NCBI GenBank assembly: GCA_948956705.1
Contig: CARCZS010000001.1
Location: 180,094 to 244,093, forward strand
Source: an uncultured Phocaeicola sp.
GTDB lineage: Bacteria > Bacteroidota > Bacteroidia > Bacteroidales > Bacteroidaceae
Direction of reading: 5' to 3'
Length of the DNA: 64,000 nucleotides
Positions 33,026 through 55,551 of the stretch are shown piece by piece. The notes below the pieces were generated by a model, which was not told where the DNA came from, did no database searches, and saw only the letters and a list, made by a program, of their open reading frames with translations. The translations under genes were made by a program, and so were the position numbers. The number at the start of each line of letters is the position of its first letter. The first letter of the stretch is position 1.

Positions 33026-33071
33026 TTATATCACTTTTCTTTGATTTTGCTTATTATTCGGATTTTTATTG

Positions 33072-36540: not shown

Positions 36541-36547
36541 ATATATA

Positions 36548-37054: not shown

Positions 37055-37092
37055 TTATTGCATATATTTAATTATAGTGTTTCATTGAACGT

Positions 37093-37144
37093 GTCTGAAG
37101 AGGAATGCTCAATCCTCTATAATTCAGACAACAATGCAAAATTA
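37093..37144 (-). promoter_or_regulatory. -7 element and leader hairpin of the membrane/MBL unit
   Basis: TAATTTTG on the minus strand (37137-37144) fits the -7 consensus; transcription would start near 37130. The RNA would begin with a hairpin: GTCTGAA (37093-37099) pairs with TTCAGAC (37123-37129), and inside it GAGGA (37100-37104) pairs with TCCTC (37113-37117). Confidence 0.5.
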
Positions 37145-37587
37145 CAAAATTCTTTTCATTATTTCATCATTCAACATAGATAAGATACAAAAGGCTGAAG
37201 AAATTGCAGCGAATTTGGGTGATAATAAAAAAGGAAATCACATGAAATACTTATTTTAAAATTATTTCAAAATTTTATGATTGTTTTTTTTGATAGAAAT
37301 ATATATTATGTCCATTAAATATTATAAGTCATCTGCGTATTTTCTACGTAAGTGGCTTTTATTTATGGTCATTTCTTGTGACTGTCTTATGATTCCTTTA
37401 TGATAAGAAGCACTATAATAGAAATCTACTACTGATATTCTCCATTACTAGTATTGATAATCAGCATATAATACTTATGACGATGATGTTTCGTTGCTGT
37501 ATTTTTATGTGATGTATTACACCACAAAATCAGTATTTGAAATCGCTGTTACTTTGCCGAAAAATCAAACAGTAAACAAGTAATTAT
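37145..37587. other. Non-coding stretch between cargo unit and excisionase-like gene
   Basis: No gene is seen in 443 AT-rich bases. A weak promoter-like TTACTTTG lies at 37549-37556, 32 bp before the next ATG, but lacks one base of the -7 consensus. Confidence 0.45.
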
Positions 37588-37947
37588 ATGAGCGAGAAGA
37601 ACATTACATTTGAAGATTTGCCCAAAGCAATGTCGTGGATGATGGATAAGTTAAATGAATTGGATTCCAAGATTGACAGTCTGAACAATCCAAGTCCCAA
37701 TGTTCCAACCGAGCAATGGATGAACCTTAAAGAACTGTGTGATTATATTCCCAGTCACCCGGCAGAACAAACTGTGTATGGTTGGACGAGTTGCCATCTA
37801 ATTCCATTTCACAAAAGAGGAAAGCGTATCATGTTCCTTAAATCTGAAATAGATGAGTGGCTTCATGCTGGCAAAATAAAATCTGAGAAAGATTTGGAAG
37901 ATGAAGCTGCCCAATTCATAAAGTCAAAAAGAAATACCAGGTTCTAA
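37588..37947 (+). CDS. Excisionase-like helix-turn-helix protein (element A)
   Basis: The 119-residue protein has an N-terminal coiled coil (about 10-33) and a MerR/excisionase-like HTH: WMNLKELCDYIPSHPAEQTVYGW, then KRGKRIMFLKSEIDEWL. Proteins of this type bind element ends or the replication region in Bacteroides mobilizable elements. The stop codon overlaps the start of the next gene (TAATG). Its counterpart in element B is at 58192-58545 with the same layout. Confidence 0.8.
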   Translation: MSEKNITFEDLPKAMSWMMDKLNELDSKIDSLNNPSPNVPTEQWMNLKELCDYIPSHPAEQTVYGWTSCHLIPFHKRGKRIMFLKSEIDEWLHAGKIKSEKDLEDEAAQFIKSKRNTRF

Positions 37948-39320
37948 TGGATGCAACCAATTTATGCAATGCACTCAGAATGGAATTTGAAGGGGTCTTT
38001 GAAAGCAAGATTCCTTTGGATGCTTTTCCTGCCAAAATTCAAGATATGATATTGGCTTTAGCACGGCAAGAAAATTATTCCATTGAGTACATGATGGCTT
38101 CTCTTTTGGTGGCAGTATCAACCGCTATTGGCAACGCTGTCAATATCCGTATTCGTGGTGGATGGATTAGTAATTCTGCCCTTTATATGATATTGGTAGG
38201 TCGTCCCGGAATGGGTAAAACTCCACCTCTGGATTTCGCATTCCGTCCCATCCGAAAGCATGATGCTAAAATCATCAAACAATTCAAATTGGATATGGAG
38301 CATTATAATAGCTTGGTTGAAAACGGCAAAGCTAAAAAAGACAACTCCTCTCCACTACCAGACAAACCTATTTTACGAAGAACTATCATATCCGATTTTA
38401 CTCCGGAGGCTTTAATGCGTGCGCTTGATGATAATCAACGAGGTATCGTGGTATATGTAGATGAAATCATGGGAATGTTTAATGCCGTGAATCAATATAG
38501 TAAAGGGCAACTTATTGAGCAACTATTGACCGCCTTCAGCGGAAAACCGCTGGATATTTCAAGGTGTAGTATGCCTATACCGATTCATATAGAACACCCC
38601 TTTATAAATATAGTCGGTACAATGCAAACAACTCGTATGCACGAACTAATAGAGAAAGGTTATAAAGACAATGGGTTGATAGATAGGATAATTTTTGTAT
38701 ATCCATCCTCACAAGAAATTTCTGATTGGCAATTGGATGAAGATTCATCCTCCGCATCTTTTGATAAATACTCTGCTATGTGGGAATCTATCATTAACAA
38801 AGTAATTAGCTTACCTTTTACAGAGACAGAGGATAATGGATTAACACAAAAAATATTGGACTTTTCTTCGGAAGCCAAAGCCTTTTTTACAAACTGGCGT
38901 AACGAGGCGATTCGAGCTGTCAATCAAATCCAAGATGATGGACTCGTGGATAGCAGAGTGATTAAGGCTCCTATGATTACTGCTCGTTTGGCTTTAGTCT
39001 TGCAAATTCTTCGTTGGGCTTGTGATGAAGTCCACAAGGATTTTGTAGATATAGACTCAGCCAAATCAGCTATTGCATTGAGTGAATACTTTGAGAACTG
39101 TTACGTCAACATCCAGAAATATATGTTGAGAGAGAGCGTTGAACCACAAAAGAGAGAATTGCTTGATTGCCTTTCCGCAAATTTTACTACTGCCGATGCT
39201 CTTCAAGCCGGGAAAGAAGTGGGGCTGTCTGAACGGTCAGTAATGTATTCGTTGGTCAATCTTGCTACGAATAAGATTATCAAGAAGGTAAAGCGAGGTG
39301 AATATGAGAAACTGCAATAA
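37947..39320 (+). CDS. DUF3987 P-loop ATPase, replication protein of element A
   Basis: The 457-residue protein has a Walker A motif in LVGRPGMGKTPP (about 88-100) and a Walker B-like VVYVDEIMGMF (about 170). This is the DUF3987 helicase/primase-associated fold common in Bacteroides mobilizable elements. The C-terminus is a winged-helix-like domain. It overlaps the excisionase-like gene by one base and ends within a field of short repeats, followed by a TOPRIM primase gene. The set likely unwinds and primes the excised circle. Confidence 0.83.
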   Translation: MDATNLCNALRMEFEGVFESKIPLDAFPAKIQDMILALARQENYSIEYMMASLLVAVSTAIGNAVNIRIRGGWISNSALYMILVGRPGMGKTPPLDFAFRPIRKHDAKIIKQFKLDMEHYNSLVENGKAKKDNSSPLPDKPILRRTIISDFTPEALMRALDDNQRGIVVYVDEIMGMFNAVNQYSKGQLIEQLLTAFSGKPLDISRCSMPIPIHIEHPFINIVGTMQTTRMHELIEKGYKDNGLIDRIIFVYPSSQEISDWQLDEDSSSASFDKYSAMWESIINKVISLPFTETEDNGLTQKILDFSSEAKAFFTNWRNEAIRAVNQIQDDGLVDSRVIKAPMITARLALVLQILRWACDEVHKDFVDIDSAKSAIALSEYFENCYVNIQKYMLRESVEPQKRELLDCLSANFTTADALQAGKEVGLSERSVMYSLVNLATNKIIKKVKRGEYEKLQ

Positions 39321-39419
39321 ACGATACCTTTTGCACTTTGCAGTTGTTGCAGTTTGCATATTGTCCCATATAACTTTCTGCAAAACTGCAATAAGTGCAA
39401 ACTGCACGGACTGCAATAA
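39311..39419. repeat. Iteron-like repeats ahead of the primase gene
   Basis: ACTGCAATAA occurs three times (39311-39320, 39385-39394, 39410-39419), and the inverted core TTGCAGT twice (39338-39344, 39347-39353). The field sits between the DUF3987 and TOPRIM primase genes and could be an origin or a repressor site. The primase ATG is 15 bp past the last copy. Confidence 0.55.
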
Positions 39420-39433
39420 CAAAACGATGAAGT

Positions 39434-40453
39434 ATGACTGAATATAGATTTTCTCTTCAAAAATATAAACGAGGTACAAAGCTATCATGTCCGAAGTGTG
39501 GAAAGAAGCAATGCTTTGTCAGGTATATAGATAGTCAAGGAGAAATAACCTTTCCTGATTATGTGGGTAGATGTGACCATGAACAATCTTGTCAATACCA
39601 TTACACTCCATCAGATTATTTCCATGATAATCCAATGTTGGCGGACAGCAATAAGAATAGTTTTGTTGAAGTTCGCAAATCCCAACCATATTTGCCACCT
39701 CCCATTTCTTTTATTGACAAAGAACTAATGGAACGAACTCTTACTAACTACGGTATGAATCCATTGTACATTTACCTGTCAGGGATATTGGGCAAAGACG
39801 AGACTTCTCGGATATTCCAACTATATCATATTGGCACATCAAAGAAGTGGGGCGGTTCTACTGTCTATTGGCAAATTGATTGGCAGGGTAATGTACGAAC
39901 AGGGAAGATAATGTTGTACGATGCAGAAACAGGACATCGGACAAAAGAGCCAAGAAGTTATGTTAGTTGGGTACATACAGAGCTGAATCTCCCAAACTAC
40001 AATTTGAAGCAATGTTTGTTTGGCGAACATCTGTTGTCTGAGATTCCGACTAAACCAGTAGCTATTGTGGAAAGTGAAAAATCTGCTTTGGTAGCTACCC
40101 ATTATATGCCGGAGTTTATATGGTTGGCAACAGGTGGAATACACGGATGCTTCAATTCTGACGTGGTAAGTGTGTTGAAAGGTCGGTCAGTTATGCTATG
40201 CCCGGATTTGGGTGCAAGAGAGGTTTGGCAAACCAAGATGGCTTTACTCATTTCCGTATGTTCTAAAGTTGTATTGAGTGATAGTTTGGAACAATGCGCC
40301 ACAGACGAACAGCGCAAGAACGGACTTGATATTGCGGATTTCTTATTGATGACTGAAACACCTGCGATGATACTTCAAAAGATGATAAAGCGAAATCCAA
40401 ACCTACAAACTTTGATTGACTACTTGCATTTGGAACTGGTAGATTCCGGTTAG
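39434..40453 (+). CDS. TOPRIM primase-like protein (DUF6371 type)
   Basis: The 339-residue protein has an N-terminal zinc-finger-like CPKCGKKQC...CDHEQSCQYH (about 19-53) and a central DUF6371-like region. A TOPRIM fold follows, with AIVESEKSALVATH (catalytic Glu) and SVMLCPDLGA (Asp). It would lay down primers for replication of the excised element. Element B lacks a homologue and has a VirE-N/PriCT pair in its place. Confidence 0.82.
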   Translation: MTEYRFSLQKYKRGTKLSCPKCGKKQCFVRYIDSQGEITFPDYVGRCDHEQSCQYHYTPSDYFHDNPMLADSNKNSFVEVRKSQPYLPPPISFIDKELMERTLTNYGMNPLYIYLSGILGKDETSRIFQLYHIGTSKKWGGSTVYWQIDWQGNVRTGKIMLYDAETGHRTKEPRSYVSWVHTELNLPNYNLKQCLFGEHLLSEIPTKPVAIVESEKSALVATHYMPEFIWLATGGIHGCFNSDVVSVLKGRSVMLCPDLGAREVWQTKMALLISVCSKVVLSDSLEQCATDEQRKNGLDIADFLLMTETPAMILQKMIKRNPNLQTLIDYLHLELVDSG

Positions 40454-40543
40454 TGATGTGTTTTTGGAGAAGCCAAACTAAGGGGAAAGTAAAACTATTG
40501 ATTATCCAAATAGATATAGGTGACAATAGCCACTCTTAAAGTT

Positions 40544-40690
40544 GACAGACAAATGGCATAGTTCGGACAAAGACAATGCTTGCATTTAAGATATGTAATG
40601 CCCCATTTTTAATGGGTATTCTATGCAAGAAGTACCACCGTCCGACAAAATAGTTTCACTCATTTGTCGTCTTGGAGGCTTCTTGCATTA
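40544..40690. other. Candidate origin of transfer (oriT) of element A
   Basis: Gene-free interval 40454-40748, directly upstream of the mobilization genes, rich in inverted repeats: GACAAATG (40548-40555) with CATTTGTC (40661-40668), CCCATT (40602-40607) with AATGGG (40611-40616), and ATGCAAGAAG (40623-40632) with CTTCTTGCAT (40679-40688). Position and structure suit an oriT; the nick site is not identified. Confidence 0.45.
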
Positions 40691-40748
40691 CTCGCAGGCT
40701 CGCAATGGATAGAACACTTTTAGAAATAAATTCCAGTTATAAACGCTT

Positions 40749-41123
40749 ATGAATATACAACAAGACAATAGCAAACAGAATGCTCGTACTCGTCATATAG
40801 ACATTCGTTTGACTCAAAAAGAGTATGAAGCGATAGTAGAAAAAGCAGCCGAATGTGGACTGACACTTAGCAACTACGGACGAAGATTATTGCAAAATCA
40901 CCATCCAAACAAACGACTTTCAGACAAGGAAGTACAAGGATTGAACTCTTTATCGGATGCACGAGCCGACCTTATCCGCATTCAGAATGTACTCAAAAGT
41001 AAACCTGATGAGATTAAAAAACGATACTTCCGAGATGAAGATTATATGCGTGCTTGGATAGAAGCAGTAAATAGGCTTATTGTCCGATGGGGACAAATAC
41101 GAGATAGTATAAATCAAATTTGA
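40749..41123 (+). CDS. Relaxosome accessory protein, MobB/MobC type (element A)
   Basis: The 124-residue protein has an N-terminal ribbon-helix-helix (TRHIDIRLTQKEYEAIVEKA) and the mobilization family phrase GLTLSNYGRRLLQNHHP. The C-terminal helix region resembles the MobC-type relaxosome family. Such proteins bind oriT and help the relaxase nick. The relaxase gene starts 4 bp downstream. Element B has a matching gene at 60996-61364. Confidence 0.85.
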   Translation: MNIQQDNSKQNARTRHIDIRLTQKEYEAIVEKAAECGLTLSNYGRRLLQNHHPNKRLSDKEVQGLNSLSDARADLIRIQNVLKSKPDEIKKRYFRDEDYMRAWIEAVNRLIVRWGQIRDSINQI

Positions 41124-41127
41124 AATT

Positions 41128-42327
41128 ATGATAGCACAAGGAAACGCAATTTCTCATGGAGCACGAGCTATTGAGTATTCCATAGATAAAGACAAAGCCC
41201 GGCTCGTTAAGGTGAATGACTTGCCGGAAAATATAGAACCTTTGGCTATGTGGTCACGAATGATGCAACACCAGCATCAATGTATGAAGGACAGATATAA
41301 TCCGAAACCCATAACGCTGAACGCACTGCGCTTTGAGATTTCTCCAGCCAAAGAAGAATCGGCAGGGTGGACAATGACGGATTGGCAGAATTTGGCGGAT
41401 GAGTTTATCGCCGTGCTTGATAGCATTGACAGAAGATGTGGCAAACCAGATAGTCATCTTAAACCGACCAATATCAAAAATAGCCAGTATGTTGTTTCAC
41501 TACACACTGACAGCAAAAGTGGCATCCCTCACTTGCACATTGTGGCTAACCGTATAGACAATATGGGCAAAACAAACGATGCGCACTATATTGGTGAACG
41601 TGCCGTTCATGCTGCCAACATCATCAATGAGAGACGTGGCTGGGTGCAATCCGTGCAACGTCGTGATGAGAATATTCAGCAAATCAGTGAAGACTGCATC
41701 GCCATTTTGAAAGCTATGCCAGAATTTGATTGGGAAACTTATTGCCAGATGTTAAACGCCAAAGGGTATGATATTAAGTTGACAAAAGACGATGAGGGAG
41801 TGGTTAAAGGCTATGCTATACGAAAAGGAAATTCCATTTATAAATCTTCAATATTGGGTAAAAGTCGAAAATTAATGCCATCAAAAATTGAAGCGACTTG
41901 GGCTGGATTACATGCTTCTAAGGAACAAATTCCCATTCAACCAACAGAAACAGAAGCACAAACAAAGGCACATAATAATAAAGAAGTGGTTATTCTGTCA
42001 AATCCTATAACTCATCACTATTCCATGTCTGTAGATGGAGAGCAATTTGAGGTTGATATACCAGATATGGTTAAGTCTGTCTTTGACGAAGAGTTTGGAA
42101 GCCTTGATGAAGAAGTCAAACAGACCAATTTATTCAAAGTTGCCGCCTTACTATTTGCCGGATATTTGGATGCTGCCACTTCTATGGCGGCTTCAAGCGG
42201 AGGTGGTGGCAGTCCCGGTGATGGATGGGGCAAAGATAAGGACGATGATGAGCGTAACTGGGCTATTCGTTGTGCAAAAATGGCAAAATGGCTCTGTAAG
42301 CCGATTAAGCGTAGCAGGGGTAGATAG
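41128..42327 (+). CDS. MobA-type relaxase (element A)
   Basis: The 399-residue relaxase nicks oriT and leads DNA transfer. The metal-binding motif is PHLHIVANRID (His135, His137), and an N-terminal motif with the likely Tyr is in GARAIEYSIDK. The C-terminus is glycine-rich (SSGGGGSPGDGWGKDKDDD) and basic, as in Bacteroides MobA-like proteins. It forms a unit with the upstream accessory gene and the downstream coiled-coil protein. Confidence 0.88.
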   Translation: MIAQGNAISHGARAIEYSIDKDKARLVKVNDLPENIEPLAMWSRMMQHQHQCMKDRYNPKPITLNALRFEISPAKEESAGWTMTDWQNLADEFIAVLDSIDRRCGKPDSHLKPTNIKNSQYVVSLHTDSKSGIPHLHIVANRIDNMGKTNDAHYIGERAVHAANIINERRGWVQSVQRRDENIQQISEDCIAILKAMPEFDWETYCQMLNAKGYDIKLTKDDEGVVKGYAIRKGNSIYKSSILGKSRKLMPSKIEATWAGLHASKEQIPIQPTETEAQTKAHNNKEVVILSNPITHHYSMSVDGEQFEVDIPDMVKSVFDEEFGSLDEEVKQTNLFKVAALLFAGYLDAATSMAASSGGGGSPGDGWGKDKDDDERNWAIRCAKMAKWLCKPIKRSRGR

Positions 42328-42353
42328 TATTTCATTTATAATCACATAGAACC

Positions 42354-42932
42354 ATGCGTAAAAGTAAATATGACCAATCTCCTTTACCAGTGCAGGGTAG
42401 TAAGTGCATAGATAAAGATGATAACATTAGCAAAATTGAAAATCGTGTTGATTTTGAAACCGAGCTTGTAAATCTCACGAATCAGATTAAGGACATCAAA
42501 GATGTTATCCAAGAATTGAGACAGATAAAAGCATTTGTAGATGCTTCAGTGTTAACTTTTGAAGAATCGGCACAGGTTCTCAATGCTGCTGTAAAAACAT
42601 TTGACAATATCTCTGATACTATTTGCCATGCAATTATTCAGACGGAGAATACTGTTATAAATGTCAAACTTAGCGATGAGGATAAGGCTGTTCTTGCTGA
42701 ATATCGCCATAGATTGATTGAGGCAGAAAAATCTTTATTTGAGAAGCAGATAACAGAATTGAAGGCACTTCATACTAATCACTGGAAAGAAGTCTATAAA
42801 TATGTAAAATCTGACACTTCGTTTTCTCTTAATGGCAGGATAGCCAAATGTGCCATTGTCGGATTCTGGATATTGTATGCGTATTTTTGTTTGACACTGG
42901 GAGGATTGATAATTTATATGAAGTTCTTTTAG
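42354..42932 (+). CDS. Coiled-coil membrane protein of the mobilization unit (element A)
   Basis: The 192-residue protein is mostly helical, with a long coiled coil (about 25-85 and 105-140) and one C-terminal membrane segment (about 166-187, AIVGFWILYAYFCLTLGGLI). I recognise no family. A similarly built protein lies at the same place in element B (62247-62885). It may tether the relaxosome to the membrane or to a helper coupling protein; that is inference from position. Confidence 0.7.
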   Translation: MRKSKYDQSPLPVQGSKCIDKDDNISKIENRVDFETELVNLTNQIKDIKDVIQELRQIKAFVDASVLTFEESAQVLNAAVKTFDNISDTICHAIIQTENTVINVKLSDEDKAVLAEYRHRLIEAEKSLFEKQITELKALHTNHWKEVYKYVKSDTSFSLNGRIAKCAIVGFWILYAYFCLTLGGLIIYMKFF

Positions 42933-42972
42933 AGGAATTTGGAAGGATGGGCTGACCAACCTTCCAAATACA

Positions 42973-43779
42973 TCACCATGTTATGACCTTATCAACAATC
43001 TCTTGTTGTTCGGCACTGCTACGCCTCAAATAAATGCGAGTGGTCTCAATGCTTTCATGTCCCATCAGGTCAGCAAGCAAAGAAATATCGTTGAACTTCT
43101 CCAAAAAATTCTTGGCAAAGCGATGGCGAAACGAATGAGGATAAACCACCTTCTCATTCAAACCATATTTTGTGGCATAGTTTTTTAACTGCTGCGCAAT
43201 ACCTCTGGTGGTGATACGCTCGCCAAAGCGATTGAGGAATAGATAACCGCTTGTACGATTGGTACTATTGAGCCACTCCGTAGCTTCCTTGCGGAGTGAT
43301 TTAGGAATATAGATACGGCGTATCTTGCCACCTTTGGTATAGATGTCAAAATAACCTATCTGCACGTGTTCCACCTTCATTTGTATAAGTTCACTGACTC
43401 TTGCACCTGTGGCTGCGAGAAAACGAACAACGAAATACCATTCTTGGTTTTCTTCTTTTTTTAGTTTGTTTTTCAGAAAAGCGTAGTCGGCATTGCTGAT
43501 TACATTTTCTAGATAACTACGCTGTTGTACCTTGACAGATTTTAATCTCAAACGAGATTTATTCATATAGTCAAGATACTTGTTCATTGCCTGAATACGT
43601 AGATTTACAGTTTTAGGCTTGAACTTCTCAATGAGATAAGTTTTATACACAAGCAAATTACGCTTGTTCAGTTCCTTGTGACGAGAATAATACTCTTTTA
43701 CGGCATAGTGGTAAGCTGCAATCGTATTCTCCGCCATATTCCCTTGACGAAGATACGTTTCAAAATTTTCAATGTTCAT
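42973..43779 (-). CDS. Tyrosine recombinase, candidate hsdS invertase
   Basis: The start at 43779 (MNIENFETYL) gives 268 residues; an in-frame ATG at 43809 adds ten unlikely residues. The catalytic residues are placed by motif: Arg in ATGARVSEL, HSFRHRF (His, Arg), LMGHESIET (His) and the nucleophile Tyr in TTRIYLRR. It is much shorter than the element integrase and faces away from the adjacent hsdS cassettes. This is the layout of DNA-inversion recombinases that shuffle type I specificity genes in Bacteroides. It most likely acts at the inverted repeats at 43848/47122 and 45227/46296. Confidence 0.87.
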   Translation of the reverse strand: MNIENFETYLRQGNMAENTIAAYHYAVKEYYSRHKELNKRNLLVYKTYLIEKFKPKTVNLRIQAMNKYLDYMNKSRLRLKSVKVQQRSYLENVISNADYAFLKNKLKKEENQEWYFVVRFLAATGARVSELIQMKVEHVQIGYFDIYTKGGKIRRIYIPKSLRKEATEWLNSTNRTSGYLFLNRFGERITTRGIAQQLKNYATKYGLNEKVVYPHSFRHRFAKNFLEKFNDISLLADLMGHESIETTRIYLRRSSAEQQEIVDKVITW

Positions 43780-43784
43780 GTCTA

Positions 43785-43826
43785 ATACATTATTGGTTAA
43801 ACAATTCATTATCGTTAATAATGTAT
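43785..43826. repeat. Inverted repeat between recombinase and hsdS cassette
   Basis: ATACATTATT (43785-43794) and AATAATGTAT (43817-43826) are exact complements. They flank the recombinase start region and could be an operator or accessory recombinase site. Confidence 0.5.
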
Positions 43827-45246
43827 GGTATTTACAAATTCATTGAGTTCCTATTATGAGAAGTTTCTCGCTACTGGGGAGGTGAAGTGCATTGACGAGG
43901 AGATTCCGTTTGAAATACCTGCTACTTGGGAATGGTGTAGATTAGGATATATTTTCTCACATTGCACAGGAAAGGCTTTGAACGGCACTAATAGAAAAGG
44001 AAATTTATACACATATATTACTACATCGAATCTCTATTGGGATAGATTTGAATTATCTTCCTTAAAAGAAATGTATTTTACTGAAGAGGAATTGGGAAAA
44101 TGTACAGCTACTAAAGGCGACTTATTGGTATGCGAGGGTGGAGATATTGGAAGAAGTGCAATATGGAATTATGACTATAACATTAGGATTCAAAATCATA
44201 TTCATAAACTGCGGTCTTACATCCCATTGTGTACACGATTTTTCTACTATGTAATGTATTTATACAAGGGCATAGGTTATATCGGTGGCAAAGGAATTGG
44301 AATCCAAGGATTATCATCTGGGGCATTGCACAATATTCTTATCCCTACTCCTTCAATTAACGAGCAAAAGCGTATTATTTCTCAAATAGAAGCAATTATG
44401 CCAATCGCTGTCAAATACGAAAAATCTCAAGAAGAATTAAATCAACTAAACGATAGCATTCATAATAGGCTTAGAAAATCCATTCTTCAAGAAGCAATCC
44501 AAGGCAAACTCGTCCCTCAGATTCCGGAAGAAAGAACTGCACAAGAATTACTTGAGCAGATACGGCAGGAGAAACAAAAGCTCGTAAAAGAGGGCAAGCT
44601 AAAGAAGTTTGCACTGTCTGATTCTGTTATCTATAAAGGTGACGATAACAAGTACTTCGAGAAGAATGGAAATACGGAAATGAATATTACTGACGAGATT
44701 CCATTTGAAATACCTGATAGCTGGAGTTGGGTAAGACTTAACGATATATGTTCTTATATCCAAAGAGGGAAGTCACCTAAATACTCTCTGATAAAGAAAT
44801 ACCCTGTTGTAGCGCAAAAGTGTAATCAATGGAGTGGTTTCTCAATAGATAAAGCCCAATTCATAGATCCAGATACTTTATCATCGTATGGTGAAGAACG
44901 TATTTTACAGGACGGAGATTTAATGTGGAACTCTACAGGATTGGGAACATTAGGACGAATGGCAATTTATTGTAGTACCTTAAACCCGTATGAATTGGCT
45001 GTGGCAGATAGTCATGTTACTGTTATAAGAGCAATGAAAAAGTTTGTTCTGCCACAATACCTTTATTACTATTTCACAAGCAATACGGTACAATCTGTAA
45101 TAGAAGATAAATCGGATGGTAGCACAAAACAAAAGGAGCTTGCAACTGCTACAGTAAAAACTTATCTAGTTCCGATTCCACCTCTGATGGAGCAAAGCCG
45201 AATTATCTCAAAGATTGAGCAATTAGCAAGTATTATGAGAGGATAA
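43825..45246 (+). CDS. Silent hsdS cassette with two target-recognition domains
   Basis: The 473-residue frame is a type I specificity protein without its conserved N-terminus. It begins near YYEKFLATGEVKCIDEEIPF and holds TRD1 (about 33-210), a central conserved helix region (KSILQEAIQGKLVPQIPEE, about 217-290) and TRD2 (about 295-470). Homology to the complete hsdS on the other strand starts abruptly at 43848, at the inverted repeat. The first codons (43825-43847) are non-homologous, so it is probably not expressed until inverted onto the expressed 5' end. The end IISKIEQLASIMRG is a natural HsdS C-terminus. Confidence 0.85.
   Translation: MVFTNSLSSYYEKFLATGEVKCIDEEIPFEIPATWEWCRLGYIFSHCTGKALNGTNRKGNLYTYITTSNLYWDRFELSSLKEMYFTEEELGKCTATKGDLLVCEGGDIGRSAIWNYDYNIRIQNHIHKLRSYIPLCTRFFYYVMYLYKGIGYIGGKGIGIQGLSSGALHNILIPTPSINEQKRIISQIEAIMPIAVKYEKSQEELNQLNDSIHNRLRKSILQEAIQGKLVPQIPEERTAQELLEQIRQEKQKLVKEGKLKKFALSDSVIYKGDDNKYFEKNGNTEMNITDEIPFEIPDSWSWVRLNDICSYIQRGKSPKYSLIKKYPVVAQKCNQWSGFSIDKAQFIDPDTLSSYGEERILQDGDLMWNSTGLGTLGRMAIYCSTLNPYELAVADSHVTVIRAMKKFVLPQYLYYYFTSNTVQSVIEDKSDGSTKQKELATATVKTYLVPIPPLMEQSRIISKIEQLASIMRG
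43848..43871 (+). repeat. Inversion site IR1, cassette copy
   Basis: 24 bases identical in inverted orientation to 47122-47145. It starts TTCCTATTATGAG and ends TTTCTCGC, and partial identity continues for about 50 bp. The bases just before it differ completely between the two copies. Confidence 0.8.
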
Positions 45247-45731
45247 ATGGGCAAATTATTGAAATAGAGCTTCCTTTTGAATATCCTAACAATTGGTCTG
45301 TGCTACGTTTGAAAGATATTTGCCAACTAATAGACGGTGAAAAGAGAAACGGGAAGGACATTTGTCTGGATGCAAAATACCTACGTGGAAAATCATCTGC
45401 TACCATTGTAGAGAAAGGAAAATTTGTCTATGCTGGAGACAATATCATTCTTGTGGATGGAGAAAATTCAGGTGAGGTTTTTACTGTTCCACAAGATGGA
45501 TATGTGGGAAGCACATTCAAACAGCTATGGCTTTCTTCGGCTATGTGGAAACCATATATCTTGGCTTTCATCTTGTTCTATAAAGAGGAATTAAGAAATT
45601 CAAAAAGAGGTGCAGCAATTCCGCACCTCAATAAAGAGTTATTCTACAACCTGCTTATTGGTATTCCACCTTTAGCTGAACAGCAACGTATAGCAGAACG
45701 GGTAAATGAATTATCGCAGTTGCTCAAATAG
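45219..45731 (+). pseudogene. Silent hsdS half-cassette with one target-recognition domain
   Basis: An open frame from 45219 to the TAG at 45729-45731 codes for about 170 residues: SKYYERINGQIIEIELPFEY, then a single TRD and the C-terminal LAEQQRIAERVNELSQLLK. There is no ATG; the first usable start is GTG at 45300, after the conserved entry segment. The entry segment matches the start of TRD2 in the expressed hsdS (CAAGTATTATGAG core), so this looks like a spare TRD2 cassette. It runs into the 3' end of the opposite hsdS, overlapping by 21 bp. Confidence 0.75.
45227..45239 (+). repeat. Inversion site IR2, half-cassette copy
   Basis: CAAGTATTATGAG, present inverted at 46296-46308 at the start of TRD2 in the expressed hsdS. 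TATTATGAG is shared with IR1. Confidence 0.6.
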
Positions 45732-47336
45732 TTTTTCTATTTGGGCAACAATGCGATGTTGCTCTGCCAAGGATGGAATTGGCAATAATGCCGTTGATAA
45801 ACGTTCTTTGCCAATGTTATAAAATGCCTGCCCTGATTTATTCGTTATAGATTTCATAAAATCAATCATAAAAGGAGAACTTAAAAGATAGAGAATATAC
45901 TTTGAGAGCCATTGATTTTTCAGATACAAGCGAATGATAAATACGAACCCACCGACAGTTGTGTTTGGCATATCACTATTTACTCTTACCATTTTACCAA
46001 TATTTTCCAAACTTGTAACCGCAGGTGTTAATATGTCATTCTCTTTCAATATAATATCCTCTTTAACTTTATCTTTTGTAAGAAATATATCATCATCTTT
46101 GATTCTCAATTCAAAAGGAGATATATTACCTCCACGCAGAATGCGGACACCCTCTTTTGTTGTAACGGTTTCTTCTTTTTTGAATGTTGCTCCTGTAAAG
46201 ATTGAGCATATATCTTTTAGCCTACACCAACTCCATCCATTAGGCAAATCAAAGGCTATTTCCTCAGTAATTTCTTTGTCACTCTTTCCTACCTGCTCAT
46301 AATACTTGTTATCGTCACCTTTAAAGATAACTGAATCTGTTAAAGCTGACTTTTTTAATTTGCCATCTTTGACAAGTTTTTCTTTCTCGGTTTTAATCTG
46401 TTCAAGCAATTCTTGGGCTGTACCTTCCTCTGCAATCTGTGGAACCAACTTGCCTTGAATAGCCTCCTGCAATATGGATTTTTTTAATAAGTATTGGATT
46501 TCGACATTTAATTGATTTTGTTCTTCTTGTACTTTTGAATACTTTTCTACCAATGGTAAGGCTTCGGACAACTTTAACGAAATACATTTTTGTTCCTTTA
46601 AAGGTGGAATAGGTATCAACAATTTTCTAATAGTCTCCATTGATAGGCTCGGTTGAGCTGTGGATTTCTTGATTGCATTTACTCCTCTTTGTCCACAAGG
46701 ACTCATTAGCGCAAAAACTGCATAATCTAAAGAAATGCTATCATCAAGTGGTTCTATTTTTGCAACATTAGGAGCTAAGTGGTTTTTTCTTTCAGCAGGA
46801 AAAATGCAAGTGTCACCTATACCTGCACCAATAAATGTCATTAACAAACATTTTTTGTTCAAAGCACTTCTTTCTAACTGATTTGACAACATTTCAGAAA
46901 TAGCTTCATTTTTGTTTTCTTCAAAAAATCCCATACGAACATTTTGAGCACGTACTATTGGAATTGGATTAGATGCTGATAGTGCTTCTTTGGTAAAAAA
47001 CTTAGTGTATTCAAATCCAGCTAACTTTGTAACGAAAAAAACATTGCCTATTCGTTCCCATTCCCAGCCCTGCGGTATCTCAAACGGAATCTCTTCATCA
47101 ATACACTTCACCTCACCAGTCGCGAGAAACTTCTCATAATAGGAATTGTCCTCACCACGGTAAATGATTGATTCGTTTTTGTCTTTCTTGATTTTCTTTT
47201 CCTTAATTAGTTTTTCTTTTTCTACTCTGATGCGTTCAAGAAGCATAGATGCAGGTTCGTCATTAGGATCTTGCGGTACAAGTTTCCCCTGTATCGCCCA
47301 CTGAAGTATGCTGTTTTTTAATTGCTTTCCGTTCAT
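45711..47336 (-). CDS. hsdS: Type I restriction specificity subunit, expressed copy
   Basis: The 541-residue protein determines the DNA sequence recognised by the HsdR/HsdM complex. The N-terminal conserved region has SILQWAIQGKLVPQDPND (about 9-26). TRD1 runs about 90-250, a central repeat (SILQEAIQGKLVPQIAEEGT, about 292-311) is followed by TRD2 (about 365-530), and the C-terminal helix ends IEKLFEQLR. Two inversion sites, IR1 (47122-47145) and IR2 (46296-46308), lie exactly at the entries to TRD1 and TRD2. It is the last gene of the six-gene hsd operon, 3 bp after the AIPR gene. Confidence 0.93.
   Translation of the reverse strand: MNGKQLKNSILQWAIQGKLVPQDPNDEPASMLLERIRVEKEKLIKEKKIKKDKNESIIYRGEDNSYYEKFLATGEVKCIDEEIPFEIPQGWEWERIGNVFFVTKLAGFEYTKFFTKEALSASNPIPIVRAQNVRMGFFEENKNEAISEMLSNQLERSALNKKCLLMTFIGAGIGDTCIFPAERKNHLAPNVAKIEPLDDSISLDYAVFALMSPCGQRGVNAIKKSTAQPSLSMETIRKLLIPIPPLKEQKCISLKLSEALPLVEKYSKVQEEQNQLNVEIQYLLKKSILQEAIQGKLVPQIAEEGTAQELLEQIKTEKEKLVKDGKLKKSALTDSVIFKGDDNKYYEQVGKSDKEITEEIAFDLPNGWSWCRLKDICSIFTGATFKKEETVTTKEGVRILRGGNISPFELRIKDDDIFLTKDKVKEDIILKENDILTPAVTSLENIGKMVRVNSDMPNTTVGGFVFIIRLYLKNQWLSKYILYLLSSPFMIDFMKSITNKSGQAFYNIGKERLSTALLPIPSLAEQHRIVAQIEKLFEQLR
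45720..45748. terminator. Hairpin at the convergent hsdS ends
   Basis: TTGCTCAAATAG (45720-45731) pairs with CTATTTGGGCAA (45737-45748), one G-U, loop TTTTT. It covers both stop regions and probably stops transcripts from the hsd operon. Confidence 0.6.
46296..46308 (-). repeat. Inversion site IR2, expressed copy
   Basis: Reverse complement of 45227-45239, placed at the TRD2 entry of the expressed hsdS. Confidence 0.6.
47122..47145 (-). repeat. Inversion site IR1, expressed copy
   Basis: Exact reverse complement of 43848-43871, placed at the TRD1 entry of the expressed hsdS, about 190 bp after its start codon. Inversion between the two would exchange everything downstream of the common N-terminus. 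Confidence 0.8.
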
Positions 47337-47339
47337 TTT

Positions 47340-49124
47340 TTAATCCTCTGCTTGTACTCTATATGAGAAATACTTTGAGTCTATTTTTACTCCATTTTTA
47401 AGTTTGGAATCCATCTCCTTATTCATTGTTGGGAGGAAAGAAAAATAATTCTGAATAGCAGACATAATACCTGCATTGCAACTCTTGTTTTTTACCCAAT
47501 TTTGAGGAATGAAACTTTTATTATTCTGCTCGCAATTGTTTTTTTCTGCCGAAATAGCACTGTTTAAACAGTTTGCCGCAATATTAATTATGCTGTCAAC
47601 AAGATTGTTTTCAGAAGCAACTTTTAAGCACTCACTCGGTGATGGTACATTTGTTTGATTGTTACATTTAGCAAAAACCATTGATATGGCAAAAAGAAGA
47701 TGGTATGGAGCATAAGCCTTCATTGTTAGTAGTTCCTCTTCCAGTCCTAATGGGTTTTCCTGAGTCCATGCATCCATTATTTTTCTCATCCAAAACGATA
47801 GAGCATAAGCATCTTCAGGCAAATAGTCGTTCTTGAACAATGTATTGAAATACTTGTCAAAAATCTTAGTTTCACCATAAGATAAATTAGGTCTTTGCAT
47901 GTACCAAGCTGTAAGATTCTTTCCTAAATATGATAACTCTATGCAGTACTGTTTGTCCTTGTCGGCTGGAATAATTTCACCTCTTTTGGTTGCAAAGAAT
48001 CCATTAGAATATTTTGCTTCGTATGCCTTTTTGAGTTTTAATATCTGCTTACTGTTACTGCGTAAATCTCTTGCCTTTACAGCACTTTGCGTGTTTGTGT
48101 TAATGCTAATAGAATCAGCCCTGTCTCTTTGTGGAATTTCATAAAATCTGAATAGAACATAAGCATCATCACGCTTTCGTACATTCTCACTACAACTTAA
48201 AATAGTATTCAATGATTGACATCCATTTACAACATTCAATCCATAAAGTTTAAACTCACCATTGCCACATTCTTCAATTTTGTTACAAATGGCAGTGATT
48301 CCATTATGAAAAAAGAAGAAGTCACCACATTTATTCGGATCGTTTATGGTTTTCTTGATCTTTTTATTTACGGTATTGTTAATGCCTAAACTCTGTCGTA
48401 CATTTTTCTGGAACAAAGACCCATCTTTAATGCCAGGGAGTTTTATACATTCTTTCAGAGGCATGGCTGCAACTATTACGCTTGTCGCCCCTAATTCTGT
48501 CGTCATATATTTACCAGCTTCAAGCTTGATAGTATGGTTTAAAGTTGGATTCGTTTGTTCAATAACACAACTATAAGCATCTTCCAAACCTTGTTTATCA
48601 ACTACGGAGAATTGTGTACTATAATTCAATTCAGCATCATCTTCCTCTGATAATTTGGTTTGGAATGAATGTATATCATCCATAGCCGCATCCGTAAAGA
48701 TAGATGTTGTTATTAATTCAAAACATACGCAGTAAGAGTCATCTTCTAATGCTGTTGCTATTTCTGATATTTTAGTCTTTAATTTAGAATTAGCATTTTC
48801 CTGTAATTGAGCTAAGTTACTAAACTGGCTCCAAGCAGATATAACTTCTCTCACAGGAGTTGCATCAACAGATTCACCAAGGTAGTATTTCCCTTGTACA
48901 ATATATATTTTTTGCTCGTCTTCATCAATATATACGGCATCAATTTGTTTATCATTGGCTCCGTCTGTGATGGCATCTTTAGCTTGTCTTTGATCCAGAA
49001 GATGTATATTCCGCATATACCACGCAATGAAACGTTGACCATCATTTGGAAAATTATTTTTATAATAATCTTGCGTAATTTCGTTTTTTATGATTTCAAG
49101 TACATTCGCCATAATTATATTCAT
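47340..49124 (-). CDS. AIPR (abortive phage infection) family protein
   Basis: The 594-residue protein matches the AIPR family by the central phrase LYGLNVVNGCQSLNTILSC and the surrounding KKTINDPNKCGDFFFFHNGITAICNK. The N-terminal region holds QIDAVYIDEDEQKIYIVQGKY, a D-x(n)-Q-x-K pattern (Asp62, Gln77, Lys79) as in restriction-like nuclease folds, so a DNA- or RNA-cleaving N-terminus is likely (inference). Family members block phage growth by abortive infection. It follows the Fic gene directly and precedes hsdS by 3 bp. A second start, Met5 at 49112, is equally plausible. Confidence 0.83.
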   Translation of the reverse strand: MNIIMANVLEIIKNEITQDYYKNNFPNDGQRFIAWYMRNIHLLDQRQAKDAITDGANDKQIDAVYIDEDEQKIYIVQGKYYLGESVDATPVREVISAWSQFSNLAQLQENANSKLKTKISEIATALEDDSYCVCFELITTSIFTDAAMDDIHSFQTKLSEEDDAELNYSTQFSVVDKQGLEDAYSCVIEQTNPTLNHTIKLEAGKYMTTELGATSVIVAAMPLKECIKLPGIKDGSLFQKNVRQSLGINNTVNKKIKKTINDPNKCGDFFFFHNGITAICNKIEECGNGEFKLYGLNVVNGCQSLNTILSCSENVRKRDDAYVLFRFYEIPQRDRADSISINTNTQSAVKARDLRSNSKQILKLKKAYEAKYSNGFFATKRGEIIPADKDKQYCIELSYLGKNLTAWYMQRPNLSYGETKIFDKYFNTLFKNDYLPEDAYALSFWMRKIMDAWTQENPLGLEEELLTMKAYAPYHLLFAISMVFAKCNNQTNVPSPSECLKVASENNLVDSIINIAANCLNSAISAEKNNCEQNNKSFIPQNWVKNKSCNAGIMSAIQNYFSFLPTMNKEMDSKLKNGVKIDSKYFSYRVQAED

Positions 49125-49598
49125 TTATTCGTAATCTTCGCTTTGTATTCCTAACTCACCTTTGCTCATGGCATTGGCAATATCTATTTTCAGTTCTTCG
49201 TCATAATCTTTACTGGTCAAAAAGCTATTGACGATGCGTAGCAGCAAATCTTGGTCGATGTTCGATGCTGCCACGTGATAAATGATAGATTCCAATGTAC
49301 GCATACAGATACAAGCGTGCCAATAGTAATTATTTTTGTGTAAGAAGTACGCACCCAAAGTCAGTGCAATACGCTTGTTCCCATCATTGAAGAAGTGCCC
49401 GGAACAAAATCTATACATCAAATAGGTCAGTTTGTCGGCAAAGGTAGGATAGTATAAATCGTTTTGCACAAAATCCAATGTAGCACGAATACCGCCTTCA
49501 TCACGCACTCCTTCAAAGCCACCATCACTGGCATCAATCATTTTGCCATAGATGTTTAGGGCTTCATCGTAATCTATGTAAATAATTTCCTTACTCAT
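49125..49598 (-). CDS. Fic/Doc family protein
   Basis: The 157-residue protein has the Fic-fold active site HFFNDGNKR (68-76), nearest to the Doc version (HxFxDANKR), whose members phosphorylate EF-Tu, rather than the AMPylating HPFxxGNGR type. It overlaps the RhuM-type gene by 8 bp, so the two are made together; the RhuM protein could be its antitoxin or partner. No inhibitory (S/T)xxxE(G/N) helix was spotted. It lies inside a type I restriction operon. Confidence 0.87.
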   Translation of the reverse strand: MSKEIIYIDYDEALNIYGKMIDASDGGFEGVRDEGGIRATLDFVQNDLYYPTFADKLTYLMYRFCSGHFFNDGNKRIALTLGAYFLHKNNYYWHACICMRTLESIIYHVAASNIDQDLLLRIVNSFLTSKDYDEELKIDIANAMSKGELGIQSEDYE

Positions 49599-50607
49599 CC
49601 TCTGCCTGTTTTAAGCGTTTCAGTACATCTTTATTGTCCGCTAAAATACGGTCAAAATCAATAGACTGGTCACCGATGAATCGTTCAAACTCTTCAGGAG
49701 TAACAGCTTGCAGATAGTCTGCAATGTTACCATGATACGCATCCCGGAAACTGAAGTCCCTTGAAGCCATTTTTGTTCTGGCATCATTCAGATAAGGTTT
49801 CTGCATGGGATGTTCGGCAAGTTCGTTTACAATACGCTCCACTTCGTCAATGGTAAGTTTTCTACCACCGTTTTCCTTGAATCGTTCATTGATAGCTGCA
49901 CCCACACCGTTTTCAAAAGAAGAAATAACCAATAAAACCTCTGAATACAGCGTGTGTCGAACATTGTCTTTGGAATCCAACTTCAACACTTCCCGGTATT
50001 CCTTAGCATTCTCCTTGAATACAGCCTTGTATATGAAATCTGTAATTTGAGAATATTTGTATGTGGGATGTCCGTCCACATATTGATTGATGGCAGAAGT
50101 GAGATTTTTACGATAGTTTTCCTCTGTTATTGCGGCAGGAAGGTAATGCACATCCCTGCGGTTGATATATTTTGTTCCTCCACCTGTCTTTTCATTGATG
50201 GTAGTAATCACAAAATCCAAGATAAGGCTACGGACTTTCTTGGCTTTTTCACTCTCTGTAAGTAGCATACCCATATTCAAGAAAGAGCGGAAATTAAACA
50301 GTCCAAGTTGTGTTGTTTTGCTCGCCTCATTAATAAGGTGAGCAAATTCTAACTTAAACTCTTTCAGCTGTTTACCCTTACATAAAATATATCCGTTATG
50401 CTTCAATTCATCAGAATTTGATTGCAGGTAACGATCTATTGTAGATGTGTCAACTTGATAAAAGTCGGCAACCATTTTTTTTGTAAAGCGGTATTCTCCC
50501 TCAAAGAGCATTCCTTCTATATCAAGATGTTCTTGTACTTTACTGACCGCAAAACGATTGTTAAGTACATTCTGCCGTTCTATGTTTGAGATGGTCAAAT
50601 CTTTCAT
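49591..50607 (-). CDS. RhuM-family protein
   Basis: The 338-residue protein has an N-terminal helix-turn-helix-like region (KKMVADFYQVDTSTIDRYL), the RhuM core (FNFRSFLNMGMLLTESEKAKKVRSLILDF, ending near residue 135) and a helical C-terminal half. RhuM proteins are named from a Salmonella pathogenicity island but occur widely next to type I restriction and Fic genes. The biochemical role is unknown. It sits 15 bp after hsdM and overlaps fic, which suggests it controls Fic. Confidence 0.82.
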   Translation of the reverse strand: MKDLTISNIERQNVLNNRFAVSKVQEHLDIEGMLFEGEYRFTKKMVADFYQVDTSTIDRYLQSNSDELKHNGYILCKGKQLKEFKLEFAHLINEASKTTQLGLFNFRSFLNMGMLLTESEKAKKVRSLILDFVITTINEKTGGGTKYINRRDVHYLPAAITEENYRKNLTSAINQYVDGHPTYKYSQITDFIYKAVFKENAKEYREVLKLDSKDNVRHTLYSEVLLVISSFENGVGAAINERFKENGGRKLTIDEVERIVNELAEHPMQKPYLNDARTKMASRDFSFRDAYHGNIADYLQAVTPEEFERFIGDQSIDFDRILADNKDVLKRLKQAEDE

Positions 50608-50622
50608 ATCACTTCACTATTA

Positions 50623-52131
50623 TCAGTTACACGATTTTATGTCTATGCCGAGAATTTTTTGAATCTCAGAAAGGGTTTTGTCTATTTCATGGTCGAGTGC
50701 AGCACGTTTCTCAAAATACTGTTTGAGCAGTTCTGCCGGAGGGAGTATTTCTTCTTCCTCTTTCGGGAACTTGCACTGGTCGAAGTTGCAATCCAAATCA
50801 ATCAACTGTTGGGCAGTGAACACACGGCTCTTTTCTCCCACTTCATCACTGATAATTTCTTTCCTGTCTTTCCACCATTCCTGAATAGGTAGGGTATGCT
50901 CCACCTTCATTGGTTTGGTCTTTGAGAAGTGCTTGTAGTCTTCCGGCATATCCAAGCGATAGAACCATATCTCTTTAGTCTTGAATCCTTCTTCGCAGCC
51001 CTCTGCTTCTTCATTATTAAAGAAAAGAATGTTGGTTGCAATAGAGGTATATGGGGAGAATATCGAGCCCGGTAAACGGATGATGGTATGCAGATTGAAC
51101 TTGCGGAGTAAATTTTCTTTAAGTGCAAGTTTTGCTCCATCCGTACCAAACAAGAAACCATCTGGGATAATCACACCGCATCTACCACCAACTTTGAGGC
51201 GGTACATGATAAGGGCTATGAACAAATCCGCTGTTTCACTTGAACGGTACTGCACCGGGAAATTGCTTTTTACACTATCTTCTGTGCTACCACCATACGG
51301 AGGATTCATACCGATAACATCCACTTTATCGCTTTCCTTGAAATCAGTGATATTTGTTCCAAGCGAATCACAGTTAGCTATATTGGGAGCTTCAATATCA
51401 TGGAGTAACAGATTTGTTATACTCAAAAGATAAGGTAGCGGTTTCCATTCTTGTCCCACGACTGCATTTTGCAGTTTTTCTCCATCTTCGGCAGAACTGA
51501 CGCTCTTACTCATATAATTGAGAGCAGAGGTAAGGAAGCCGCCTGTACCACTGGTGAAGTCACCAAAGGTCTCGCCCAATTTCGGGTCAAGCATCATCAC
51601 GATAAAGTCTGTCAAAGCACGTGGAGTATAGAACTCACCTGCATTGCCTGCTGATTGCAAGTCTTTCAAGATTCCCTCATAAATATCTCCAAATGTGTGG
51701 CGGTCATCAGCATCGTCAAATTCGATTTCATTTACGATGTTGACCACTTGACGCAAAAGCGTTCCATTCTTCATATACTGGTTTAAGTCAGCAAATGTTT
51801 CTAGAACAATGCTTTTGGCTCTTGGTGTATTGGCGTCTATCGGAAGATTCTTTAAAGTAGGGAACAGTTTTTCATTGACAAAAGAGAGCAATGCTTCTCC
51901 TGTTAATGCTTCACCGTCTTTTTCATCTACTGCCCATTTACGCCAACGCAAATCTTCGGGGATGATAGACTTGTAGTTTTCATCTTTGTATTCCCAAGTT
52001 TCTTCCTGAGTGTCATAGACTTTCAAGAAAAACATCCAAGTCATTTGTTCAATTCTCTGTGCGTCACCATTGATACCAGCGTCTTGGCGCATTATATTTT
52101 GGATTCGCTTTATGATGTTGTTTACTGCCAT
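50623..52131 (-). CDS. hsdM: Type I restriction-modification methyltransferase subunit
   Basis: This 502-residue N6-adenine methyltransferase has an N-terminal helical HsdM domain (about 5-130), SAM-binding motif I as DFTSGTGGFL (191-200) and the catalytic NPPY (276-279, MNPPYGG). It methylates the target chosen by HsdS and is needed for restriction too. It starts 2 bp after the hsdR stop in the same transcript. Confidence 0.95.
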   Translation of the reverse strand: MAVNNIIKRIQNIMRQDAGINGDAQRIEQMTWMFFLKVYDTQEETWEYKDENYKSIIPEDLRWRKWAVDEKDGEALTGEALLSFVNEKLFPTLKNLPIDANTPRAKSIVLETFADLNQYMKNGTLLRQVVNIVNEIEFDDADDRHTFGDIYEGILKDLQSAGNAGEFYTPRALTDFIVMMLDPKLGETFGDFTSGTGGFLTSALNYMSKSVSSAEDGEKLQNAVVGQEWKPLPYLLSITNLLLHDIEAPNIANCDSLGTNITDFKESDKVDVIGMNPPYGGSTEDSVKSNFPVQYRSSETADLFIALIMYRLKVGGRCGVIIPDGFLFGTDGAKLALKENLLRKFNLHTIIRLPGSIFSPYTSIATNILFFNNEEAEGCEEGFKTKEIWFYRLDMPEDYKHFSKTKPMKVEHTLPIQEWWKDRKEIISDEVGEKSRVFTAQQLIDLDCNFDQCKFPKEEEEILPPAELLKQYFEKRAALDHEIDKTLSEIQKILGIDIKSCN

Positions 52132-52133
52132 TT

Positions 52134-54458: not shown

Positions 54459-54467
54459 GACAATAAA

Positions 54468-54674: not shown

Positions 54675-54771
54675 GAGGTAAAATGTTTTAATCACAGAGC
54701 AAAATTATATAATTTATCCGACATCAGCACTACTTCCTATAATAATTATTATCAGGAAGTGGAAAAGAGGC

Positions 54772-55518: not shown

Positions 55519-55543
55519 ACCTATTGTTGTTTATTTCGCAATG

Positions 55544-55551
55544 CAAAGATA
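55544..55551 (-). promoter_or_regulatory. -7 element of the two-helix membrane protein gene
   Basis: TATCTTTG on the minus strand, 25 bp before the ATG. Confidence 0.5.

What the first reader, a model, noticed from the sequence alone, without database searches (positions are those of the whole stretch)
43848..47145. Type I specificity gene inversion locus with precise 24-bp sites
Identity between the silent cassette and the expressed hsdS begins abruptly at a 24-bp inverted repeat placed at the TRD1 entry, and a dedicated tyrosine recombinase sits beside it. Inversion would move the cassette's two TRDs behind the common N-terminus and change the methylation pattern of the cell.
Basis: partly seen in the sequence, partly recalled or inferred. 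Interest (0 to 1): 0.72.

Follow-up and report, generated by a model that had tools for sequence, protein, structure and literature searches.

The report
Switchable DNA-methylation specificity gene
A mobile DNA element in a gut bacterium carries a restriction-modification system whose target-recognition gene looks built to be cut and flipped by its own recombinase, so that cells of one strain could mark their DNA in different ways; such systems are known, but this one shows a second pair of flip sites and one apparently switched-off site copy.

Summary
The expressed hsdS (45711-47336, -) and an opposite-strand cassette share an exact 24-bp inverted repeat (43848-43871 / 47122-47145; 66 of 72 over the longer match), 38 bp from a tyrosine recombinase that is 63% identical to a protein annotated as DNA invertase PsrA.

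Three corrections. (1) The cassette holds three recognition domains: TRD1B, TRD2b, TRD2c. (2) A second inverted pair lies before the second TRD (cores 45231-45239 / 46296-46304). Both pairs share the core TATTATGAG. An HsdS of Bacteroides caecigallinarum is 90% identical, end to end, to the predicted product of this second inversion. (3) The TRD2b copy has another core (TACTTCGAG). In hand-picked related loci the first TRD2 of a tandem has the canonical core in 0 of 18 runs, other copies in 46 of 53.

Predicted: four arrangements, three specificities (A-a, A-c, B-b). The system is cargo of a mobilizable element at the 3' end of dnaK, probably in Phocaeicola vulgatus (name recalled). Inversion itself was not observed; no reads were available. 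New member of a known kind.

The parts
42973..43809 (-). tyrosine recombinase (278 aa), PsrA-like; motifs consistent with R137, K162, H225, R228, H251, Y260 (residue roles recalled from the family)
   Evidence: Pfam Phage_integrase 1e-28; 63.2% identical to a protein annotated PsrA DNA invertase; motif positions
43848..43871 (+). site 1, cassette copy; core 43852-43860 TATTATGAG
   Evidence: 24-bp exact inverted repeat; core
43825..45246 (+). cassette ORF (473 aa) with TRD1B (43897-44400) and TRD2b (44692-45228), presumably silent
   Evidence: Methylase_S 1e-23, two stretches; half-domains
44653..44661 (+). altered core TACTTCGAG before TRD2b, predicted inactive
45231..45239 (+). site 2 core TATTATGAG before TRD2c (16-nt repeat 45224-45239)
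45210..45731 (+). TRD2c, third stored half-domain, in another frame
   Evidence: Methylase_S 3.5e-13 for 45300-45731; frame
45711..47336 (-). expressed hsdS (541 aa): N-terminus, TRD1A (46557-47096), TRD2a (45723-46265)
   Evidence: PADLOC Specificity_I 1.7e-109
46296..46304 (-). site 2 core TATTATGAG in expressed hsdS (16-nt repeat 46296-46311)
47122..47145 (-). site 1 in expressed hsdS; core 47133-47141
47340..49124 (-). AIPR / AbiU-like gene in the operon
   Evidence: Pfam AIPR 8.9e-30; PADLOC AbiU 1.3e-36
49125..49598 (-). Fic/Doc-family gene
   Evidence: Pfam Fic 1.2e-10; PADLOC PDC-M59B
49591..50607 (-). gene matching PADLOC PDC-M59A (weak ORF6N match below Pfam's cut-off)
50623..52131 (-). 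hsdM
   Evidence: N6_Mtase 1.2e-56, HsdM_N
52134..54458 (-). hsdR
   Evidence: NCBIfam EcoAI/FtnUII-family R subunit, above cut-off; ResIII
32955..55833 (.). approximate extent of the integrated mobilizable element that carries the locus
   Evidence: same-species genome G001 matches up to 32954 and not beyond; imperfect second copy of the dnaK end from about 55816; integrase, NikA-like and relaxase genes

Best explanation
[quoted passage not shown] A PsrA-like tyrosine recombinase inverts DNA between two independent pairs of head-on sites that share the core TATTATGAG. Site 1 (43852-43860 / 47133-47141) exchanges the expressed TRD pair A-a for the cassette pair B-b. Site 2 (45231-45239 / 46296-46304) exchanges only the second TRD, a for c. 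A third copy of site 2, before TRD2b, has another core and is predicted not to recombine, which would avoid excision between direct repeats and keep TRD2b attached to TRD1B. Predicted: four arrangements and three HsdS specificities (A-a 541 aa, the present one; A-c 510 aa; B-b 529 aa), read from one start codon behind hsdR and hsdM. Shown: the anatomy, open frames of the products, co-occurrence of core and recombinase across bacteria, and a natural homologue of the A-c product. Inferred: that inversion occurs in this strain, that this recombinase does it, that the methylated motif changes, and that the altered core is inactive.
For: Exact 24-bp pair and second pair with one core. One search kept the best 80 of 112 recombinase relatives; HsdS half-domains are on both strands near it in 46 of 80, and in 38 of the 46 with at least 6 kb upstream. 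Core within 150 bp upstream of the recombinase in 47 of 72 loci against 3 of 1400 control windows. YYE cores read TATTATGAG in 119 of 127, 20.5 expected from codon usage. First-half cores of the two strands identical in 31 of 36 loci, 11 of these with a non-canonical core. Predicted products all full length. The HsdS of L029 is 89.6% identical over 510 of 510 positions to predicted A-c, 68.4% to A-a. Recombinase 63.2% identical to annotated PsrA. Altered core: 0 of 18 tandem-first copies canonical, 46 of 53 others.
Against: No inverted molecule was seen. The core motif is missing upstream of the recombinase in 25 of 72 loci, many of them distant ones, and 7 of the 46 loci with long upstream DNA have no HsdS domain at all. 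The site picker favours the canonical core and the loci are related, so the counts are not probabilities. The three bases after the core also differ by class (AAG in 18 of 18 tandem-first, CAG in 22 of 31 sole copies), so the altered core may mark a lineage. L124 has two canonical direct copies after its tandem-first one. L157 (G683) shows a canonical core at a contig end in a genome where no recombinase was found. One paper title in the listing (PMC6620402) says that recombination at a pneumococcal hsdS locus is independent of all known site-specific recombinases.
Confidence: 0.82

Rival explanations
1. Two-state switch: only the 24-bp pair is used and the second pair is merely conserved HsdS protein sequence.
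For: The second repeat is short (16 nt) and lies in conserved codons.
Against: The copy before TRD2c overlaps the end of TRD2b in another frame yet keeps the core; in tandem-last copies the bases further upstream vary while the last few and the core are kept; the HsdS of L029 matches the second-inversion product over its whole length.
Confidence: 0.07
2. All three copies of site 2 recombine, so that TRD1 and TRD2 mix freely and up to six specificities arise, with occasional excision of TRD2b.
For: The TRD2b copy keeps the flanking CAAG and the reading frame; L124 tolerates two canonical direct copies.
Against: Its core differs in three of nine bases, and tandem-first copies are never canonical in 18 of 18 hand-picked runs.
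Confidence: 0.12
3. Rearrangement is by general homologous recombination between long similar stretches, the recombinase being unrelated to it.
For: Expressed and cassette genes share 72 bp at 92% and a 331-bp alignment at 72%; PMC6620402 (title in listing) reports recombinase-independent change at a pneumococcal locus.
Against: The recombinase co-occurs with inverted hsdS over several phyla and with the core; the second pair is only 16 nt.
Confidence: 0.05
4. The recombinase is only a mobility gene of the element and the cassette is a dead relic.
For: It lies beside mobilization genes of an integrated element.
Against: The element has its own arm-binding integrase at 33729-34985; the recombinase stands beside two-strand hsdS in Treponema, Fibrobacter and Clostridia records too; the frames are open.
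Confidence: 0.03

Closest known systems
Streptococcus pneumoniae cod / Spn556II hsdS locus with PsrA (PMC4948785, passages; PMC7096588, parts 1 and 2 of 7 and passages)
   Same: hsdR, hsdM, several hsdS on both strands and a PsrA-type tyrosine recombinase in one locus; short inverted repeats (15-bp IR1) in hsdS; only one hsdS expressed with hsdR and hsdM.
   Different: Pneumococcal IRs are 15, 298 and 85 bp; in S. dysgalactiae (L123) the comparable stretches read CCTTAT rather than TATTATGAG. The present locus sits on a mobilizable element in a Bacteroidales host and has three TRD2s in two orientations.
Four-way inverting Type I loci such as Streptococcus suis (PMC7394358, passages)
   Same: One repeat before the 5' TRD and one between the TRDs, the two-pair design found here.
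   Different: There two TRDs of each kind give four alleles; here three TRD2s with one apparently locked would give three.
Bacteroides fragilis phase-variable Type I RM (Ben-Assa et al. 2020, NAR; not held, seen only as a reference in PMC12632263, content recalled)
   Same: Bacteroidales, hsdS shuffled by inversion; recalled to make eight specificity proteins.
   Different: Not compared by sequence here; no altered-core copy recalled.
Gut inverton group 145 (PMC11892184, passages)
   Same: Inverted repeats in restriction subunit S genes with a tyrosine recombinase, relaxase and MobC genes nearby, in Bacteroidota and Firmicutes_A; the closest match in setting.
   Different: Its repeat sequences were not seen, so identity with the present sites was not tested.

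Membership tests
Inverting (phase-variable) Type I RM locus | complete hsdR, hsdM and hsdS | tested here: met
Inverting (phase-variable) Type I RM locus | second hsdS with different TRDs in inverted orientation | tested here: met
Inverting (phase-variable) Type I RM locus | inverted repeats placed so that inversion gives an open chimaeric hsdS | tested here: met
Inverting (phase-variable) Type I RM locus | more than one arrangement in a population | not testable with these tools
   no reads; L029 shows a natural homologue of one product
Inverting (phase-variable) Type I RM locus | methylation motif changes with arrangement | not testable with these tools
   no methylome
PsrA-type tyrosine DNA invertase | sequence similarity to PsrA | tested here: met
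   63.2% identity over 97% of the query to a protein annotated PsrA; no NCBIfam model reached its cut-off
PsrA-type tyrosine DNA invertase | gene lies in a Type I RM locus with several hsdS | tested here: met
PsrA-type tyrosine DNA invertase | acts on short repeats in hsdS | tested here: inconclusive
   core and recombinase co-occur in 47 of 72 loci; activity not tested
PsrA-type tyrosine DNA invertase | same site sequence as streptococcal PsrA | tested here: inconclusive
   L123 stretches share TTAT only in part; the pneumococcal IR1 sequence was not seen

The most novel reading that the evidence does not exclude
Loci of this family are kept stable by position-dependent absence of a recombination site: where two TRD2 units lie in tandem, the first has other codons in place of the site core (KYFE, KYWE, or synonymous KYYE), which prevents excision between direct repeats and locks that TRD2 to its TRD1. 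Such a locus holds a freely shuffled part and a protected pair. The same recombinase family, with nearly the same core (TATTATAAG), also serves Type IIG-like RM genes.
Probability: 0.5. Interest if true: 0.55.

Novelty: new member of a known kind. Interest (0 to 1): 0.42.

Why it matters
If it works as predicted, one gut strain can switch among three DNA-methylation patterns, and so three restriction barriers, by means of a system that a mobilizable element can carry between species. The shared 9-bp core gives a simple way to predict which hsdS loci, and perhaps some Type IIG loci, are invertible in Bacteroidales. The altered-core copies make a clean test of how multi-cassette shufflons escape self-deletion, since a natural variant site can be compared with its neighbours in the same locus.

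Tried and rejected
L001 (Phocaeicola massiliensis) first looked like an inversion exactly at site 2. Its TRD1 stretch proved to be a scaffold gap of N, so either site pair could explain it and I do not use it as proof. An automatic count of the tandem rule (tandem-first canonical in 1 of 25, tandem-last in 17 of 18, sole in 28 of 43) was spoiled by split domains (L053, L009) and by Treponema-type loci; I replaced it by a hand-picked list of Bacteroidetes-type copies (18 tandem runs, 35 sole copies). Left out of that list: L048 (other flanking bases; tandem-first TATTATGAA, last TATTATGAG), L124 (fetched from another source; tandem-first TATTGGGAG, then two canonical copies) and the more distant loci. 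Kept although their contigs end there: L016 and L042. One search used 31 of the 35 sole copies (L016, L042 and both of L032 dropped). Of three genomes with a spacer relative and no recombinase match, G728 and G653 lack the canonical core, at 38-43% identity where alignment is uncertain, while G683 shows it at a contig end; so whether tandem-first copies lost the core or never had it stays open. No full Bacteroides-type promoter was found before the recombinase or the cassette. Viral contigs gave three relatives. Contigs end within 150 bp upstream of the recombinase in 11 of 80 loci against 2 of 80 downstream: suggestive of unresolved arrangements, but repeats alone can do this.

Literature: the searches listed no title or abstract start about altered site copies in tandem TRDs; only the listed papers were looked at, and the two closest NAR 2020 papers are not held, so I do not claim that it is not in print.

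Full report
What is there. The window holds a Type I restriction-modification operon on the - strand: hsdR 52134-54458 (EcoAI/FtnUII-type model), hsdM 50623-52131, a gene matching PADLOC PDC-M59A, a Fic/Doc gene, an AIPR/AbiU-like gene, and hsdS 45711-47336. Neighbouring genes overlap or lie at most 15 bases apart, which suggests one transcript (inference). Facing hsdS on the + strand is a cassette with HsdS domains, and next to it a 278-aa tyrosine recombinase at 42973-43809.

Observation check. The 24-bp repeat is exact: 43848-43871 (+) and 47122-47145 (-), within 72 bp at 91.7% identity; the 60 bp before it match at 17 of 60. It lies in codons for SYYEKFLA just before TRD1. In 200 single-base shuffles of 42900-47500 the longest exact inverted repeat was 20, against 24 in the real sequence.

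The cassette contains three TRD units. After TRD1B and TRD2b (one ORF, 43825-45246) comes TRD2c, read in another frame (45210-45731; Methylase_S 3.5e-13 for 45300-45731). A second inverted pair, 45224-45239 / 46296-46311, 15 of 16 bases, lies before TRD2c and before the expressed TRD2a. Sites 1 and 2 share the core TATTATGAG. The copy before TRD2c overlaps the last codons of TRD2b in a different frame (LASIMRG and stop against KYYE), so there the DNA rather than one protein sequence is kept.

Relatives. A scan of genome contigs with the recombinase found 112 relatives and kept 80 loci, in Bacteroidales, Treponema, Fibrobacter, Clostridia and others. HsdS half-domains lie on both strands in 46 of 80, on one strand in 14, on none in 20; of the 46 loci with at least 6 kb upstream of the recombinase the figures are 38, 1 and 7. 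The core, written CTYATAATA, is within 150 bp upstream of the recombinase in 47 of 72 loci with at least 100 bp there, and in 3 of 1400 control windows downstream; the 25 misses include many distant loci. Among cores read as YYE, 119 of 127 are TATTATGAG, where codon usage in the TRDs predicts 20.5. The picker favours that core and the loci are related, so the excess is indicative, not a probability. The first-half cores of the two strands are identical in 31 of 36 loci, 11 of them with CATTATGAG, CACTATGAG or CATTATGGG: partners change together, as a crossover site requires.

A natural homologue of the second product. In silico the two pairs give four arrangements and full-length HsdS proteins of 541 (A-a, present), 510 (A-c), 529 and 529 aa (B-b, differing only in the last residues). 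The HsdS of B. caecigallinarum (L029) is 89.6% identical to the predicted A-c protein over 510 of 510 positions and 68.4% to A-a. TRD2c relatives stand directly behind an expressed TRD1 in L003 and L029, and on the other strand in L002, L004, L006, L009 and the window.

The altered copy. The TRD2b site reads TACTTCGAG. Among hand-picked Bacteroidetes-type copies the first TRD2 of a tandem has the canonical core in 0 of 18 runs, the last in 17 of 18, and sole TRD2s in 29 of 35 (Fisher p 1.5e-11, not corrected for relatedness). Replacements are TACTTCGAG (8), TATTGGGAG (8) and TACTACGAG (2); the last is synonymous, and different replacements occur within one group of similar TRD2s. The 15 bases before the core are nearly invariant in tandem-first and sole copies alike, but the three bases after it differ too: AAG in 18 of 18 against CAG in 22 of 31. 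A Segatella plasmid locus (L124) again has TATTGGGAG first, then two canonical direct copies, an exception to a strict one-pair rule. Of three genomes with a spacer relative but no recombinase match, two lack the canonical core and one (G683) has it at a contig end. Pneumococcal hsdS DNA was seen deleted between imperfect direct repeats ending in CTTATG, the enzyme unidentified (PMC4948785, passages); such loss is the hazard that an altered core would avoid (inference).

Recombinase. It is 63.2% identical to a protein annotated PsrA in S. dysgalactiae plasmid NZ_CP044103.1. PsrA of S. pneumoniae is needed for inversion at the 15-bp IR1 (PMC4948785, passages) and inverts repeat-bearing supercoiled DNA in vitro (PMC7096588, parts 1-2). 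The comparable streptococcal stretches in L123 read CCTTAT, so the sites are alike only in part. Against a sole role of such enzymes, a title (PMC6620402) reports recombination at a pneumococcal hsdS locus independent of all known site-specific recombinases. The closest solved structure by sequence is a XerC-like recombinase, 4a8e, 2.3e-26.

Setting. G001, 99% identical over 25693-32954, matches the window up to the last base of dnaK, 32954, and not beyond in the 15 kb fetched. An imperfect second copy of the dnaK end starts at about 55816, and integrase, NikA-like and relaxase genes lie between. The system is therefore probably cargo of a mobilizable element of about 22.9 kb. G001's contig of 5,163,189 bp is, from memory, the length of the Phocaeicola vulgatus ATCC 8482 chromosome; the species name is thus recalled. 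The genus is supported by G020, of the same genus as G001, whose recombinase coordinates equal those of the named P. massiliensis record L001.

Verdict. By the features that could be tested the locus is an inverting Type I RM locus with a PsrA-like recombinase. Such loci are known, and inversion at hsdS was reported in 13 species in one survey (PMC5903667, passage); gut inverton group 145 (PMC11892184, passages) is probably the same kind. What is added is detail: two site pairs with one core, a third stored TRD2, a predicted three-specificity repertoire, and the positional absence of the core in tandem TRD2s. Inversion in this strain remains to be observed.

Noticed in passing
L043:3817-9917 (also L045, L120): The same recombinase family stands beside a Type IIG-like restriction-methylase (ResIII + Eco57I; PADLOC REase_MTase_IIG) with methylase C-terminal pieces in inverted orientation and one inverted pair of core TATTATAAG (6661+/9917- in L043). 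L041 is similar but has no exact pair.
   Followed up: partly
L047:3453-8725: The same recombinase family beside several glycine-rich (ALK_LTK_GRD) genes on both strands, with inverted repeats but no TATTATRAG pair.
   Followed up: partly
window 47340-50607: Three extra genes inside the RM operon: AbiU/AIPR-like, Fic (PDC-M59B) and PDC-M59A, candidate defence genes.
   Followed up: no
window 35551-37054: Pair matching PADLOC PDC-M48B (metallo-beta-lactamase fold, also LmuA-like) and PDC-M48A on the same element.
   Followed up: no
window 55816-63629: A second element of the same layout (HTH, integrase, primase-like, relaxase genes, then a resolvase-like gene) follows directly, behind an imperfect copy of the dnaK end.
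   Followed up: partly
window 54459-54778: A small helix-turn-helix-like reading frame lies just upstream of hsdR; a TAnnTTTG box is at about 54707; read by eye.
   Followed up: no
L004:6773-7548 and 8557-9332: A 776-bp inverted repeat at 94.6% spans spacer and TRD2b on both strands, each with the altered core TATTGGGAG.
   Followed up: no
L142 (G001:C1:5126658-5135500): The same-species genome G001 has its own, 63% identical recombinase beside HsdS half-domains, so the species may hold a second such system.
   Followed up: no
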